DNA from: Verrucomicrobiales bacterium
GTDB taxonomy: Bacteria > Verrucomicrobiota > Verrucomicrobiia > Verrucomicrobiales > V1-33
Length of the DNA: 59,288 nt
Direction of reading: 5' to 3'
Assembly: GCA_018003315.1 (NCBI GenBank)
Contig: JAGNEJ010000020.1
Location: forward strand, 1 to 59,288
Shown here: positions 4,627 through 36,062 of the stretch, piece after piece
Position numbering within the stretch: the stretch's first letter is position 1
Layout: each line of letters begins with the position of its first letter
The notes under the pieces: generated by a model
What the model was told of the DNA's origin: nothing
Databases searched by the model: none
What the model saw: the letters and a program-made list of their open reading frames with translations, nothing else
Made by a program: the position numbers and the translations under genes

Positions 4627-6327
4627 ATGTCTTCCGCTGGAATCAACTCCGCCAAGCTGCCGCTTCCGGTTCCCCCGACGATTCGCCGCTTTCGCACGCC
4701 GAGGAAAAACATCCCGCAGACCAAGGCGGAACGCGATGCGGTGCTGGCTTACGTGCGCGGCTACATTGAGCGGGTGAACCCCGTGCCCCCCCTGCCATTC
4801 GAGGAACTTCGCGTGCATGCCGAGCGCATCATCGCGGAAATGGGACTGGATCCGATTTACCGTGATTACACCGGGGTGATCTTCAGCAACGAGGTGTGGC
4901 GGGAAACGCTGGCGACCATTCCCTATGAGCGGCGGTTGTTGCTGATGCCCAAGTGCCTGCGCGTGGAGAGCAAATGTCCGGCCCCGTTCGATGAATTCGG
5001 GCTGCTCTGCAAGCAGTGCGGGCTGTGCACCATCCAGGATTTTCAGAATGAGGCCGAGCGCCTTGGCTATGCGGTGCTGGTGGCGGAGGGCAGTGCCATT
5101 GTCATGAGTCTGATTCAAACGGGCAAGATCGAGGCCATCGTCGGCATTTCGTGCCTGCCAGTGCTGGAGCGGACGTTTCCCTATGTGGAAGCCGCAGCCA
5201 TCCCGGCGGTGGCGGTGCCGCTGCTTCAGGATGACTGCATCGACACCACCGTGGACATCGACTGGGTCTGGGATTACATCCACCTAACCAGCGAGGACCG
5301 GACGCGCCGGCTCAATCTGAATGCCCTGCACGAGGAGGTGCGCGGATGGTTCGACCTGGAAAACATCAACCGCCTGATGGGGCCCGCCAACGGCCATGCC
5401 GAGGAATTGGGGCGCATGTGGCTGGCCCGGGCGGGGAAACGATGGCGGCCGTTCCTAACCGTGGCCTGCAGCCAGGCGCTGCGCAGCGATGCCGAAGCGC
5501 CGCTGACCGATGAACTCCGGAAACTGGCGCTGGCCGTAGAATGCTTCCACAAGGCTTCCCTGATTCATGATGACATTGAGGATGACGATTCCGAACGCTA
5601 CGGTGAACCCACCCTGCATGCTGAACAGGGGGTGGCGGTGGCGTTGAATGTGGGGGACCTGCTCATTGGGGAAGGCTACCGGCTGATCGCGGAGGCCAAT
5701 GTCCCCGCCCACGCCAAGGCGGAAATGCTGCGCATTGCCGCGGAAGGCCAGCGGTGCCTCTGCCGCGGGCAGGGCATGGAACTGGAATGGCTGCAGCACC
5801 GGCGTCCGCTCAGTCCCGGACAGGTGCTGGAAATTTTCAAACAGAAAACAGCCCCGGCCTTTTCCGTGGCGCTGCTCATGGGGGCAGCGCTGGCGGGACG
5901 CTTGGATGAAACGGAGGAAGTGCTCATGGCCTACAGCGAGGCGCTCGGCATTGCCTATCAAATCCGTGACGATCTGGACGACCGCGCCGCCGACACCACG
6001 GCACAATGTGCCGCCGTGCGGCCAAACATCATCGAAGCGACGGCGCGGGAGCGCTTCCGCGGGGATCTTGCGGAAGCGGCGGAGCACTGCCTCATGCTGA
6101 TGGAGCGCTACAAGGAGCAGGCCGTTCGCAGCCTGCAGGAGGTGGAAAACCCCAATCTCAAGGGCCTGCTGCGCCGCGTGGTGGGGAGGATTTTCAACGA
6201 ACTGGAAATCAAGGGCTGGTGCCGGGAGTTCGAGGTGAAAAACCAGCCTGCCGAACCGGAGGCGGCGGTGCTTTCCACACCCGTGCCGGATTCCGCTTCC
6301 GATACCGTGCTCGCAGGCGCGGTGTAG
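4627..6327 (+). CDS. DUF116 - polyprenyl synthetase fusion protein
   Basis: A two-domain protein of 566 residues. Residues about 95-225 match DUF116: a Cys cluster at 110, 117, 128, 131 and 134 (KCPAPFDEF then CKQCGLC) suggests a metal or Fe-S site, and Cys176 lies in GISCLPVLE. Residues about 235-530 are a trans-isoprenyl diphosphate synthase: GKRWRP, first Asp-rich motif LIHDDIEDDD (315-321), second Asp-rich motif QIRDDLDD (448-452). Both Mg-binding motifs look intact, so chain elongation of allylic diphosphates with IPP is likely. The tail is low complexity. The ATG at 4627 was chosen; a TTG at 4546 would add 27 residues without visible domain content. Confidence 0.85.
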   Translation: MSSAGINSAKLPLPVPPTIRRFRTPRKNIPQTKAERDAVLAYVRGYIERVNPVPPLPFEELRVHAERIIAEMGLDPIYRDYTGVIFSNEVWRETLATIPYERRLLLMPKCLRVESKCPAPFDEFGLLCKQCGLCTIQDFQNEAERLGYAVLVAEGSAIVMSLIQTGKIEAIVGISCLPVLERTFPYVEAAAIPAVAVPLLQDDCIDTTVDIDWVWDYIHLTSEDRTRRLNLNALHEEVRGWFDLENINRLMGPANGHAEELGRMWLARAGKRWRPFLTVACSQALRSDAEAPLTDELRKLALAVECFHKASLIHDDIEDDDSERYGEPTLHAEQGVAVALNVGDLLIGEGYRLIAEANVPAHAKAEMLRIAAEGQRCLCRGQGMELEWLQHRRPLSPGQVLEIFKQKTAPAFSVALLMGAALAGRLDETEEVLMAYSEALGIAYQIRDDLDDRAADTTAQCAAVRPNIIEATARERFRGDLAEAAEHCLMLMERYKEQAVRSLQEVENPNLKGLLRRVVGRIFNELEIKGWCREFEVKNQPAEPEAAVLSTPVPDSASDTVLAGAV

Positions 6328-31994: not shown

Positions 31995-32486
31995 ATGCGT
32001 TGTCCGAAGTGCCACAGTTTGGAAAACAAGGTGATTGATTCCCGGATGTCCCGCGATGGGGCTTCCATCCGGCGGCGGCGGGAATGTCTGGAATGCGCGC
32101 ATCGGTTCACTACCTACGAGTATTTGGAGGAGGCGGATTTTCTGGTGGTCAAGCGCAACGGGGCACGGGAACAATTCAGCCGGGAAAAACTGCTGAGGGG
32201 AATCATCCGGGCCTGTGAGAAACGACCGGTGCCGCGGGACACCATGGAGCAGGCGGTGGATGAAATCATTGCCGACATCCAGAAGCAGAGCCCCAAGGAG
32301 GTGCCGACGAAATGGATTGGGCTGAAGGTGATGGAAAAATTGCAGCACATCGACCCCGTCGCCTACGTGAGGTTTGCGTCCGTGTACCGGCAGTTTCAGG
32401 ATGTCGGGGAATTCATCGAGGAGATCCAGCATTTGGAAAAGCGGACACCGCGATCCGGCCTGCAGCCGGAACTTTTCGGGCAATAA
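31995..32486 (+). CDS. nrdR: transcriptional repressor NrdR
   Basis: A 163-residue NrdR, near the usual length. The N-terminal zinc ribbon is complete: MRCPKCHSLENKVIDSRMS, then RRRRECLECAHRFTTYE, giving CPKC and CLEC pairs. An ATP-cone follows at about residues 49-139 (FLVVKRNGAREQFSREKLL to VAYVRFASVYRQF). NrdR senses ATP/dATP and represses ribonucleotide reductase genes. No nrd structural genes are in the window; the paired boxes upstream indicate autoregulation. The C-terminal tail is short and variable. Confidence 0.96.
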   Translation: MRCPKCHSLENKVIDSRMSRDGASIRRRRECLECAHRFTTYEYLEEADFLVVKRNGAREQFSREKLLRGIIRACEKRPVPRDTMEQAVDEIIADIQKQSPKEVPTKWIGLKVMEKLQHIDPVAYVRFASVYRQFQDVGEFIEEIQHLEKRTPRSGLQPELFGQ

Positions 32487-33180: not shown

Positions 33181-33207
33181 CGCCCGGAAGGCGGCAACTT
33201 CCGGGCG
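33181..33207 (-). terminator. rho-independent terminator
   Basis: CGCCCGGAAG and CTTCCGGGCG form a perfect 10-bp stem with a seven-base loop. Read on the minus strand the stem is followed by TTTTCGTTTT, the expected U-rich tail. It lies 25 bases beyond the stop of the small lipoprotein gene at 33233 and closes that minus-strand cluster; it may also stop the opposing transcript. Confidence 0.85.
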
Positions 33208-33232: not shown

Positions 33233-33442
33233 TTACGGTCCGCTAAAGGAATCCGGCGGGCCGACGGGCTCAATTCCCTGTCCGCCAGACGGGGCTGTGC
33301 CGAGCGAGGGAGCGGGCCGGGGACGCGGACTGTCTGAGTGGTAATGGTGGGTCTGCGGATACGTTTGGTAAACCGTGTCCCCGCAGGATGCCAGAACCAG
33401 GGCGGCGCAGGTTCCGCCGAACAGGCCAATGATTCGTTTCAT
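33233..33442 (-). CDS. small lipoprotein with PVGxPDSFS C-terminus
   Basis: A 69-residue predicted lipoprotein: signal peptide MKRIIGLFGGTCAALVLASC with lipobox LASC, so the mature protein begins at Cys20 and has only 50 residues. The mature part is His/Pro-rich (THHYHSDSPRPRPAP) and low complexity. Its end IEPVGPPDSFSGP closely matches the end of the next small lipoprotein (IAPVGQPDSFSR). It is the last gene of a minus-strand run and is followed by a strong terminator. Function unknown. Confidence 0.7.
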   Translation of the reverse strand: MKRIIGLFGGTCAALVLASCGDTVYQTYPQTHHYHSDSPRPRPAPSLGTAPSGGQGIEPVGPPDSFSGP

Positions 33443-33491
33443 GGAGATCTCCCGGATGAAGGTGATGCCGTGATGCGGACAAACTGCGCTC

Positions 33492-33677
33492 TCAGCGGCT
33501 GAAGGAATCAGGCTGCCCGACCGGAGCGATGGCATGGTTGTCCGGCGGGGTGTATTTCTTTTTCGGTGCCGGTTTCGGCGCGACCGGCTTCGGGGCCGGC
33601 GGAGGCGGAGGTGGCGCCTGCTGGCAGGACACGACCAGAAACGAAACGGCTGCGAGCATTGCTGCGGTGAATTTCAT
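33492..33677 (-). CDS. small Pro-rich lipoprotein with PVGxPDSFS C-terminus
   Basis: A 61-residue predicted lipoprotein. The signal peptide MKFTAAMLAAVSFLVVSC ends in the lipobox VVSC (mature start Cys18). The mature chain is QQAPPPPPPAPKPVAPKPAP then KKKY and the ending IAPVGQPDSFSR. The Pro/Lys stretch could be a stiff spacer through the cell wall. It lies 49 bases upstream of the related lipoprotein gene and 52 bases downstream of the PPC-like secreted protein gene, so all three are probably one transcript. Function unknown. Confidence 0.7.
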   Translation of the reverse strand: MKFTAAMLAAVSFLVVSCQQAPPPPPPAPKPVAPKPAPKKKYTPPDNHAIAPVGQPDSFSR

Positions 33678-33729
33678 GACGATGGATGGATGTTAGGTTT
33701 GGATGAATTTGTCAGAGTCTGCCGGCGAA

Positions 33730-34236
33730 TCACTTGGGTTCACGCGGCGGGGTGGTGGAGCCGTTGGGATCGACCGGATTGTTCGTGGGCTTGTTGTAGG
33801 GAGCGCGGCCTTCCTCGCCGCGGACACCGGCGATGACTGCCCAGGAACCCATGTATTTGGCCCGCTTCACGATCATGTAAACATTGGCGGTGCCGGTGTA
33901 GTTCGGGCGGAAGCGCACCGCAGCGCGGCTGAAGTCGCGGCGGTCGTCGGAGAGCAGGTTGCCAACTTCATCGTAAACGACGAGGTCGAGGTCCTGAATG
34001 TCGGAATCCCGACCGGCGACGAAGACGTAATCCACGCCCTTGCTGACCTGGACCTCGAACCAGACAATCTGGCCTGCGGTTGCCGTGTTCGAGCGGACGG
34101 GACGGAAGCTGTAGCCCGGGTGGTAGGGAGTCATTTTCCAGGCGTCGTCCTCCGCATTGTAGGGAGTGGCGGATGAAACCTGCGGCAGCAGCAAGGCGGC
34201 GGCTGCGGAGAGGATGGTGATGAGTTTGGTTTTCAT
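33730..34236 (-). CDS. secreted protein with PPC-like beta domain
   Basis: A 168-residue protein with a signal peptide (about 1-23, ending VSSA). Residues about 45-140 form a beta-sandwich-like unit resembling the bacterial pre-peptidase C-terminal domain: VSKGVDYVFVAGRDSDIQD, LDLVVYDEVGNLLSDD, AAVRFRPNYTGTANVYMIV. Such domains accompany secreted enzymes; here it stands alone. The C-terminus is Asn/Pro-rich (NKPTNNPVDPNGSTTPP). It leads a run of three small secreted-protein genes. Function unknown; binding of a surface polymer is a guess. Confidence 0.65.
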   Translation of the reverse strand: MKTKLITILSAAAALLLPQVSSATPYNAEDDAWKMTPYHPGYSFRPVRSNTATAGQIVWFEVQVSKGVDYVFVAGRDSDIQDLDLVVYDEVGNLLSDDRRDFSRAAVRFRPNYTGTANVYMIVKRAKYMGSWAVIAGVRGEEGRAPYNKPTNNPVDPNGSTTPPREPK

Positions 34237-34327
34237 GGTTCGTGGTGGTGTGGATTTGTTCGAATGGGATTCTACTGTTTACCTTACCGCCAGGAACACG
34301 GTTTGTTACGGGCAGCAGTGGATTATT

Positions 34328-35185
34328 TTACTTTTTCTGCAGACTGCCGACAAAGGTTTCGGTGAGTTTGACCAATTCCAGGACCTGATCCCTGGGAATC
34401 CACCCGTCCGGCTTGGAATCGTCAAGCCCGACGTTGATGATCTTGCCAATGGTTTCCATGAGGCGATCCATTTCCTTCACGTTGGGACGATCGCGGATTT
34501 CGGCGGGCAGTTTCGCAAGGTTCTCCCGCAGGCTGGCAACCAGGCGCGGTTCGCGCAAAAAATTCGACAACGGTCCGGAGTAGTTTTTTTCATCTGCAAC
34601 CACTTTGGCGGCGAAACGAATGCCCTGCAGCCAGCCGCCGCTCATGAGGATCGGACCGCGGTCCCGGTTGCTGTCCCGCTCGATTTCCTTGAGCACATCG
34701 TCCTGCAGGCGGCTCAATTCCGAAAACACCTTCAACCATTCCCCTTTGGTGGCCGCTTTCCGAGCGCTTTCCGCCCGGTTCAGCTTTTCCTCCGCAACAT
34801 TGAGCTTTCTGGCCAGCACTTCAATGTCATCAGCGCACTGACCCAGCTTTTCAGAATCCTTTGCCTGAATGGCCAGCACCCCGTCCGCAATGCGCACCCC
34901 AAGCACCAGCGGCACATCCACCACGGTGTCGGCAAAGGCATCCGGATCAATGTCGAACTGGCATTCCTCAAACTGCGTTTTCCAATTCGGGCGCTTCTCC
35001 CGCAGCATGGAATCCAGCGCCAGCATTTTGTCGAGCGGCGAGGGCGGGGGCATTTTGGCCCGCTGGGCCTTGGCCATCAGATCCTTCATGCTGGGGGCTC
35101 CGCCGCTGTCCTGAGCGCGGATAACAGGACTGGCCAGCAGGATGGCAATGGCGAGAAGGGAGCGGACAGGATTCTGCAGGGGCAT
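34328..35185 (-). CDS. secreted protein of unknown function
   Basis: A 285-residue protein with a signal peptide (MPLQNPVRSLLAIAILLASP, cleavage probably after IRA at about 24). The mature chain is mostly helical, with a coiled-coil-like stretch at about 110-170 (DIEVLARKLNVAEEKLNRAE, FSELSRLQDDVLKEIERDS). No family is recognised. It is divergent from a lipoprotein gene (94 bases between starts) and lies 91 bases upstream of the small secreted protein cluster, so it may share its promoter. The start at 35185 was chosen because it begins the signal peptide. Confidence 0.65.
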   Translation of the reverse strand: MPLQNPVRSLLAIAILLASPVIRAQDSGGAPSMKDLMAKAQRAKMPPPSPLDKMLALDSMLREKRPNWKTQFEECQFDIDPDAFADTVVDVPLVLGVRIADGVLAIQAKDSEKLGQCADDIEVLARKLNVAEEKLNRAESARKAATKGEWLKVFSELSRLQDDVLKEIERDSNRDRGPILMSGGWLQGIRFAAKVVADEKNYSGPLSNFLREPRLVASLRENLAKLPAEIRDRPNVKEMDRLMETIGKIINVGLDDSKPDGWIPRDQVLELVKLTETFVGSLQKK

Positions 35186-35279: not shown

Positions 35280-35864
35280 ATGAAAAATCAAGCTTTCACC
35301 CGCTGGTTCCTGATTTTGTCCGCCGTGGCACCCCTGGCCGGCTGCGCACCGCAAAACGAGGGCGGCACCGTGGACATGTCCATCATGATGAAGGCCAAGG
35401 AAGACATGGACCAAGTGAAAGCCGGTTTTCAGGAAATGAGGGGAGAGTTGGCAAAGCTCGGCAGCCGGCTGGAGACCATCGAATCCGCCGTCAAGGAAAG
35501 CCGGACCACTGCCGCACCTGACAACCATTCGCAAATCACGGCCCTGCTCAAAGAACTCCAGGGCATCAAGACAGCCCTTGGCGAACAAAGCGAGCAGTTG
35601 GGAAAACTTTCCTCGTCGGCGGTTGCTGTCGCCGACTCTCCCGCCACTCCCGCCGGATCCAATCCTGCGGGGGAGAAACCAGCGCCGCCGACCACCACCA
35701 CCACCGCCGCGCCGCAAAATCCCACCGGTCCGTCCGCGACGGAAAAAGTCAGCGTGGACATGTCAACGCCCGGCAATAAACCAGCCGCCGACAAACCCGC
35801 GTCCGAAGCGAATCCCGGTCCGCTTCCCTTCAACGAAAAGGTCAAGGTGGACCTGACCAAATGA
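35280..35864 (+). CDS. coiled-coil lipoprotein of unknown function
   Basis: A 194-residue predicted lipoprotein: lipobox LAGC with mature Cys22. Residues 30-75 are a likely coiled coil (KAKEDMDQVKAGFQEMRGEL, KLGSRLETIESAVKE), followed by another helical part and an Ala/Pro/Thr-rich linker containing five threonines in a row. The sequence VDMS occurs near the start of the mature protein (GTVDMSIMM) and again in EKVSVDMS, with a related EKVKVDLTK at the extreme C-terminus. No known family. It is divergent from the secreted protein gene at 34328. Confidence 0.65.
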   Translation: MKNQAFTRWFLILSAVAPLAGCAPQNEGGTVDMSIMMKAKEDMDQVKAGFQEMRGELAKLGSRLETIESAVKESRTTAAPDNHSQITALLKELQGIKTALGEQSEQLGKLSSSAVAVADSPATPAGSNPAGEKPAPPTTTTTAAPQNPTGPSATEKVSVDMSTPGNKPAADKPASEANPGPLPFNEKVKVDLTK

Positions 35865-35985: not shown

Positions 35986-36062
35986 GGAGCGGTAGTTCAG
36001 TCGGTTAGAACGCCGGCCTGTCACGCCGGAGGTCGCGGGTTCGAGCCCCGTCCGCTCCGCCA
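35986..36062 (+). tRNA. tRNA-Asp (anticodon GTC)
   Basis: A standard cloverleaf: acceptor GGAGCGG (35986-35992) pairs with CCGCTCC (36052-36058), discriminator G at 36059 and an encoded CCA at 36060-36062. The anticodon stem CCGGC/GCCGG carries loop CTGTCAC with anticodon GTC at 36020-36022. The T-arm contains GGGTTCGAGCCCC. The D-arm is AGTTCAGTCGGTTAGAA. No integrase or duplicated 3' end is seen nearby. Confidence 0.97.

What the first reader, a model, noticed from the sequence alone, without database searches (positions are those of the whole stretch)
33233..34236. Run of tiny secreted proteins, two ending in a shared PVGxPDSFS motif
Two adjacent lipoproteins with mature parts under 55 residues differ everywhere except their last dozen residues: IEPVGPPDSFSGP and IAPVGQPDSFSR. 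With the PPC-like secreted protein upstream and a strong terminator downstream they form one transcription unit. The conserved tail looks like a binding or sorting tag at the end of a Pro-rich spacer.
Basis: seen in the sequence. Interest (0 to 1): 0.55.

Follow-up and report, generated by a model that had tools for sequence, protein, structure and literature searches.

The report
Lipoprotein tail tag beside GOLD-like protein
Two tiny lipoproteins that share only their last dozen residues belong to a bacterial family whose short tail is kept next to one particular secreted protein, which suggests the tail is a docking peptide in an envelope signalling system.

Summary
In detail: 33233-33442 and 33492-33677 (- strand) encode lipoproteins with mature parts of 50 and 44 residues sharing IxPVGxPDSFS at the C-terminus; this string occurs only there in the genome. 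The exact string is private to this genome, but the tail is not. In Verrucomicrobiales, 29 other genes for the upstream secreted protein (a confident GOLD/PPC-like model) were found; all 29 are followed by a tiny lipoprotein, and in 18 of 29 it ends in [FILVM]x[AP][VI]xxPx[ST][FY][ST]. Tails are more alike within a genome than between genera. The unit also includes the preceding gene (34328-35185). All 27 genomes with the secreted protein carry a relative of an FHA-ABC exporter, against 11 of 261 without; kinases lie near 20 of 28 loci. Best reading: outer-membrane lipoproteins hold the GOLD-like periplasmic protein by a C-terminal docking peptide, as part of a kinase/FHA-ABC envelope system that works like, but is not shown to be related to, TagQRST-PpkA. 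Binding is inferred, not shown.

The parts
34328..35185 (-). c2: secreted, mostly uncharacterised protein of about 285 aa, first gene of the unit
   Evidence: relatives at about 42% identity beside the PPC-like gene at 21 of 28 loci; no Pfam match above cut-off
33730..34236 (-). secreted GOLD/PPC-like beta-sandwich protein, 168 aa
   Evidence: AlphaFold2 pLDDT 85.9; Foldseek matches to p24 GOLD domains, a subtilase and ColH collagen-binding domain; 29 other genes in the order
33492..33677 (-). tail lipoprotein A, 61 aa
   Evidence: lipobox VVSC, Pro-rich spacer, C-terminal tail; matches family profile at E 1.4e-12, being one of its rows
33495..33530 (-). tail of A: IAPVGQPDSFSR
   Evidence: read from the sequence; aligned with relatives
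33233..33442 (-). tail lipoprotein B, 69 aa
   Evidence: lipobox LASC, spacer, tail; matches family profile at E 9.2e-18, being one of its rows
33236..33274 (-). tail of B: IEPVGPPDSFSGP
   Evidence: read from the sequence; aligned with relatives
33181..33207 (-). terminator-like stem-loop after lipoprotein B
   Evidence: 10-pair stem and T-rich tail; not more than shuffles give
34322..34353 (-). promoter-like sites just upstream of the PPC-like gene (two overlapping)
   Evidence: 2 found, mean 0.4 in shuffles; a consensus match only
35280..35861 (+). divergent coiled-coil lipoprotein ending PFNEKVKVDLTK; positional counterpart of the c3 lipoproteins of other loci
   Evidence: same place and layout as c3; no BLAST match to c3 and only a weak tail similarity, 98 of 2000 shuffles

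Best explanation
The two proteins are lipoproteins of the outer membrane made of a lipid anchor, a flexible Pro/Ser/Lys-rich spacer and a C-terminal docking peptide. The peptide (consensus FxAVxxPxSYS, here IxPVGxPDSFS) most likely binds the periplasmic GOLD/PPC-like protein encoded just upstream and so holds it at the outer membrane. The unit c2 - GOLD-like protein - tail lipoprotein(s) is probably the envelope part of a signalling or export system that also uses an FHA-ABC exporter and Ser/Thr kinases. Shown: gene order, tail conservation, coding constraint, neighbourhood, co-occurrence with the exporter. Inferred: outer-membrane location, binding of the tail, direction of signalling.
For: All 29 other PPC-like genes are followed by a tiny lipoprotein; strict tail in 18 of 29; among 4433 stop-ended frames of 45 codons or more in 28 loci the strict tail ends 19, all of them these lipoproteins, and the reversed pattern ends none. 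22 of 22 family-profile matches below 1e-10 in 288 genomes lie beside a PPC-like gene (16 of the 22 are rows of the profile). Tails are more alike within a genome (53% identity, 11 pairs) than between genera (22%, 152 pairs); 4 of 10000 label permutations reach it, spacers 656 of 10000. Nonsynonymous change is rarer than synonymous in all nine gene pairs taken whole. All 27 genomes with the PPC-like gene have the FHA-ABC relative, 11 of 261 without. In a read-through fold the tail block has pLDDT 80 with a two-residue bridge, the stretch before it 49. No Asp at +2 in 36 of 36 lipoproteins, which by the recalled E. coli rule means outer membrane.
Against: No binding was measured. The read-through fold has no control and no coordinates. 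11 of 29 loci have altered tails and one (L126) none that I recognise. Two genomes of one genus have paired tails that differ (L090, L092). G003 has a tail lipoprotein directly after c2, with no PPC-like gene in the 72 bases left before the contig end, so the partner could be c2. The tail pattern was drawn from the same data.
Confidence: 0.45

Rival explanations
1. The tail is a docking peptide for another partner: the c2 protein, the periplasmic part of the kinase, the FHA-ABC exporter or peptidoglycan. The GOLD-like protein is a neighbour, not the receptor.
For: c2 is beside the unit at 21 of 28 loci, and in G003:C312 a tail lipoprotein directly follows c2 near the exporter. Kinase relatives lie at 20 of 28 loci.
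Against: c2 relatives were not found at seven of 28 loci with a PPC-like gene and a lipoprotein, among them the second copies L114 and L115; L118 is cut by its contig end. The PPC-like gene is the upstream neighbour of the lipoprotein at all 29 other genes.
Confidence: 0.25
2. The tail is a sorting or export tag that sends the lipoprotein to the cell surface or is cut off on the way.
For: The tail is C-terminal, short and conserved apart from the rest of the protein.
Against: A general sorting tag should occur on many different proteins; here the strict tail ends only these lipoproteins in the loci examined, and the family profile finds them only at this system's loci. A tail-only search of whole proteomes was not possible.
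Confidence: 0.1
3. Ordinary tandem copies of a small structural lipoprotein; the tail is the slow-changing end and has no special partner.
For: Several loci have two adjacent copies and spacers are low-complexity and change fast.
Against: The tail is kept across four families of the order and in single-copy loci while the spacers hardly align, beside the same partner gene.
Confidence: 0.15

Closest known systems
TagQRST-PpkA sensor module of the Pseudomonas aeruginosa H1 type VI secretion system
   Same: An outer-membrane lipoprotein (TagQ) recruits a periplasmic protein (TagR), with an ABC transporter (TagS, TagT) and a threonine kinase (PpkA); passages of PMC6657622 seen.
   Different: No homology tested or seen; no type VI genes looked for; here the lipoprotein is under 100 aa with a spacer and a tail, the partner is GOLD-like, and the ABC transporter carries FHA domains.
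Rv1747-PknF, FHA-ABC exporter with its kinase in Mycobacterium tuberculosis
   Same: An ABC exporter with FHA domains in an operon with a Ser/Thr kinase (starts of abstracts seen in the search listing); c4 of L102 has FHA, ABC and ABC2-membrane domains and lies beside a kinase.
   Different: No lipoproteins or GOLD-like protein are named in what I saw; in the window's genome the c4 relative lies on another contig.
GOLD and PPC-like beta-sandwich domains
   Same: Foldseek matches of the model to p24 GOLD domains, subtilase Tk-SP and ColH collagen-binding domain, E 2.8e-5 to 9.6e-4.
   Different: No Pfam family at E <= 1 for the window protein; here it is a stand-alone small secreted protein.
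C-terminal sorting tags such as PEP-CTERM (recalled)
   Same: Short conserved C-terminal stretch on otherwise unrelated secreted proteins.
   Different: No hydrophobic helix or basic cluster follows the motif; the chain ends 1 to 4 residues later.

Membership tests
PPC/GOLD-like domain proteins | sequence match to a curated family | tested here: not met
   0 Pfam families at E <= 1 for 33730-34236; 0 NCBIfam at E <= 0.05
PPC/GOLD-like domain proteins | beta-sandwich fold of this type | tested here: met
   confident model with Foldseek matches E 2.8e-5 and weaker, TM-score by query 0.41-0.52
TagQRST-PpkA sensor module | outer-membrane lipoprotein with a periplasmic partner protein | tested here: inconclusive
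   lipoprotein and secreted partner are neighbours at 29 of 29 other loci; location and binding not testable
TagQRST-PpkA sensor module | kinase and ABC transporter encoded with it | tested here: inconclusive
   kinase relatives at 20 of 28 loci, c4 at 13 of 28; neither next to the window unit, both elsewhere in the genome
TagQRST-PpkA sensor module | homology of the parts to TagQ and TagR; type VI secretion genes | not tested
   no comparison made
FHA-ABC exporter with kinase (Rv1747-PknF type) | FHA + ABC + ABC2-membrane domains in one protein | tested here: met
   L102 c4: PF00498, PF00005, PF01061; the window genome's relative matches residues 225-962 at 50% but was not scanned for domains
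PEP-CTERM-like sorting tags | motif followed by a hydrophobic helix and basic residues | tested here: not met
   the chains end 1 to 4 residues after the motif

The most novel reading that the evidence does not exclude
An undescribed envelope signalling module of Verrucomicrobiales in which lipoproteins reduced to anchor, spacer and docking peptide present a short, genome-specific C-terminal code that recruits a GOLD-like periplasmic protein and, together with a second tail on coiled-coil lipoproteins (MPVxxDVxIxF[ED]), links the outer membrane to Ser/Thr kinases and an FHA-ABC exporter.
Probability: 0.33. Interest if true: 0.75.

Novelty: new variant of a known kind. Interest (0 to 1): 0.55.

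Why it matters
It gives a partner and a system, both testable, to a class of proteins usually skipped in annotation: lipoproteins under 100 residues with no domain. If the tail docks the GOLD-like protein, a 12-residue peptide would explain how these bacteria hold a periplasmic component at the outer membrane and tie it to Ser/Thr kinases, of which this genome has 22 candidate matches.

Tried and rejected
Exact motif PVGxPD.F. in the order: 20 of 288 genomes, but outside this genome the frames are not tail lipoproteins; rejected as chance. A search with one G003 lipoprotein alone gave mostly weak low-complexity matches. A scan of one genome each for 84,980 species by peptide patterns gave one locus, the same length of contig and place as G003:C48. 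Weaker PPC-like relatives in the family (L013-L022) show no tail lipoprotein within about 1.5 kb by my finder; treated as a separate branch. The gene before the PPC-like gene in L012 looked like an ECF sigma factor: only a sub-threshold match, E 4e-4. I first took c2 for such a factor too and dropped this on reading its sequence. The divergent lipoprotein 35280-35861 as a c3 homologue: not shown. My gene caller picked some antisense frames in this GC-rich DNA, so c2 in the window was found only by direct comparison. Searches for print on such a unit: searches listed 0 papers, one search listed 2 that look unrelated by title and abstract start.

Choices of mine: PPC-like counted at E <= 3.1e-12, exporter at E <= 1e-60. 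The 24 further PPC-like matches between 2.5e-9 and 1e-4 were left out of the counts. The strict tail pattern was drawn from the same sequences that it counts. Genus sizes used were counted by eye from the listing, and the large genera g6 and g11 were left out of that product.

Full report
What is there. On the - strand of the window lie, in order of transcription, a secreted protein of about 285 residues (34328-35185, here called c2), a secreted protein of 168 residues (33730-34236), lipoprotein A (33492-33677) and lipoprotein B (33233-33442), then a terminator-like stem at 33207-33181. The gaps between the last three genes are about 50 bases. The lipoproteins have mature parts of 44 and 50 residues; the match of their tails is beyond shuffled sequence (0 of 3000), and the motif is found nowhere else in the genome.

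The exact motif is private, the tail is not. The back-translated motif is absent from the 12 other genomes of the family, and in the order it hits 20 of 288 genomes; outside this genome the frames are chance. A profile of the 168-residue protein, made from this window and one relative, found 30 genes in 27 of 288 genomes of the order at E <= 3.1e-12, this one included. Looking downstream of the 29 others showed a tiny lipoprotein each time: 26 by a script rule and three more by eye, whose lipobox the rule missed. Tails read, for example, AESFRAVEKPGSYSN, PEDFKAVSPPHSFSQ, SPDNFQAITKPSTYSR, NPDSVEPVRTPSTYTR and NLEPVRKPATFSPSY. Eighteen of the 29 carry the strict form (15 by the script, three more by eye); the rest have shortened or altered tails such as AESFEPVGKNQ, DPRDFKPVEGF or TPESTTVVRPAE, and in L126 I see none. 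Among 4433 stop-ended frames of at least 45 codons in 28 loci the strict tail ends 19, all of them these lipoproteins. The pattern was drawn from these sequences, so the count describes them and does not test them.

Where else. A profile of 16 tail lipoproteins against the 288 genomes gave 22 matches below 1e-10, each beside a PPC-like gene; 16 of the 22 are rows of the profile and six are not. The next matches, from 1e-6 down, mostly end before the tail. One of these, in G003, proved to be a third tail lipoprotein of that genome, after a c2 gene and near the exporter, with the tail DTPESTTVVRPEE against DTPESTTVVRPAE of a lipoprotein at the genome's other locus. In 387 genomes drawn from the phylum only three match at 1e-7, all of this order.

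Constraint. In all nine gene pairs compared, nonsynonymous change per site is below synonymous over the whole gene, so these small frames are real genes. In three of the four most distant pairs the tail is clearly stricter than the spacer; in the fourth (L078/L114) the two are about equal, and in one close pair (L082/L083) the only nonsynonymous changes fall in the tail. For nine genomes with two or three such lipoproteins, tails are more alike within a genome (53% over 11 pairs) than between genera (22% over 152 pairs); 4 of 10000 permutations of genome labels reach this, against 656 of 10000 for the spacers. Against this stand two genomes of one genus (L090, L092), whose paired tails differ, and the possibility of tandem copying with fast spacer drift.

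Neighbours. The window gene 34328-35185 has relatives at 21 of 28 loci, so the conserved unit is c2 - PPC-like - tail lipoprotein(s). Many loci also hold a Ser/Thr kinase relative (20 of 28; kinase plus beta-helix domains), a coiled-coil lipoprotein (c3) and an exporter with FHA, ABC and ABC2-membrane domains (c4, 13 of 28 loci; domains). In the window none of kinase or exporter is adjacent, but the genome has 22 kinase matches, none on this contig, and one c4 relative on another contig. A search for c4 in the order found it in 38 of 288 genomes: all 27 with the PPC-like gene and 11 of the 261 without (Fisher p 1.8e-29). Genomes are related, so this p is not literal; within nine genera in which PPC-like presence varies, seven lean clearly the same way, two hardly or not at all (product 3.7e-9, genus sizes counted by eye, two large genera left out).

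Structure. The model of the window PPC-like protein is confident (pLDDT 85.9) and resembles GOLD domains of p24 proteins, a subtilase and the ColH collagen-binding domain; Pfam gives no match. As a docking trick I folded one chain read in frame through the stop between the PPC-like and the lipoprotein gene of L118. The domain stays at 95-98, the region between lies at 40-61 apart from one Pro-rich block at 73, and the tail block rises to 80 with a two-residue bridge. Coordinates are not on hand and no control was run, so this is a hint only.

How it most likely works. By the recalled +2 rule (no Asp in 36 of 36) the lipoproteins stay in the outer membrane. The spacer reaches into the periplasm and the tail docks a protein, most simply the GOLD-like neighbour. 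The nearest working analogy is TagQ recruiting TagR together with an ABC transporter and a kinase (PMC6657622, passages) and, for the exporter with its kinase, Rv1747-PknF (starts of abstracts). Neither relation is one of shown descent. The searches for print named under Tried and rejected found nothing on this unit in the open library; most subscription papers are not covered.

Verdict. The binding partner and the function remain inferred.

Noticed in passing
L102-L117, c3 genes (for example L109:4079-5002 and 5034-6017, - strand): Coiled-coil lipoproteins of the same loci have a second conserved C-terminal tail, MPVxxDVxIxF[ED], after their own Pro-rich spacer.
   Followed up: partly
window 35280-35861 (+): Divergent coiled-coil lipoprotein in the place of c3, ending PFNEKVKVDLTK; similarity to c3 tails is weak (98 of 2000 shuffles).
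   Followed up: partly
L170 6941-7150 (G003:C312): A third tail lipoprotein of G003 directly after a c2 gene, with nearly the same tail as at the other locus of that genome.
   Followed up: partly
L013-L022: A wider family of secreted proteins with a FKGNEYWFFLG-like stretch, weakly similar to the PPC-like protein, is common in this bacterial family.
   Followed up: no
L102 11663-14500, L105 8127-10580: Ser/Thr kinases with right-handed beta-helix domains in their C-terminal part.
   Followed up: no
window 31995-32486 (+) and 35986-36062 (+): An NrdR-type repressor gene and a tRNA-Asp gene flank the unit; ordinary.
   Followed up: no
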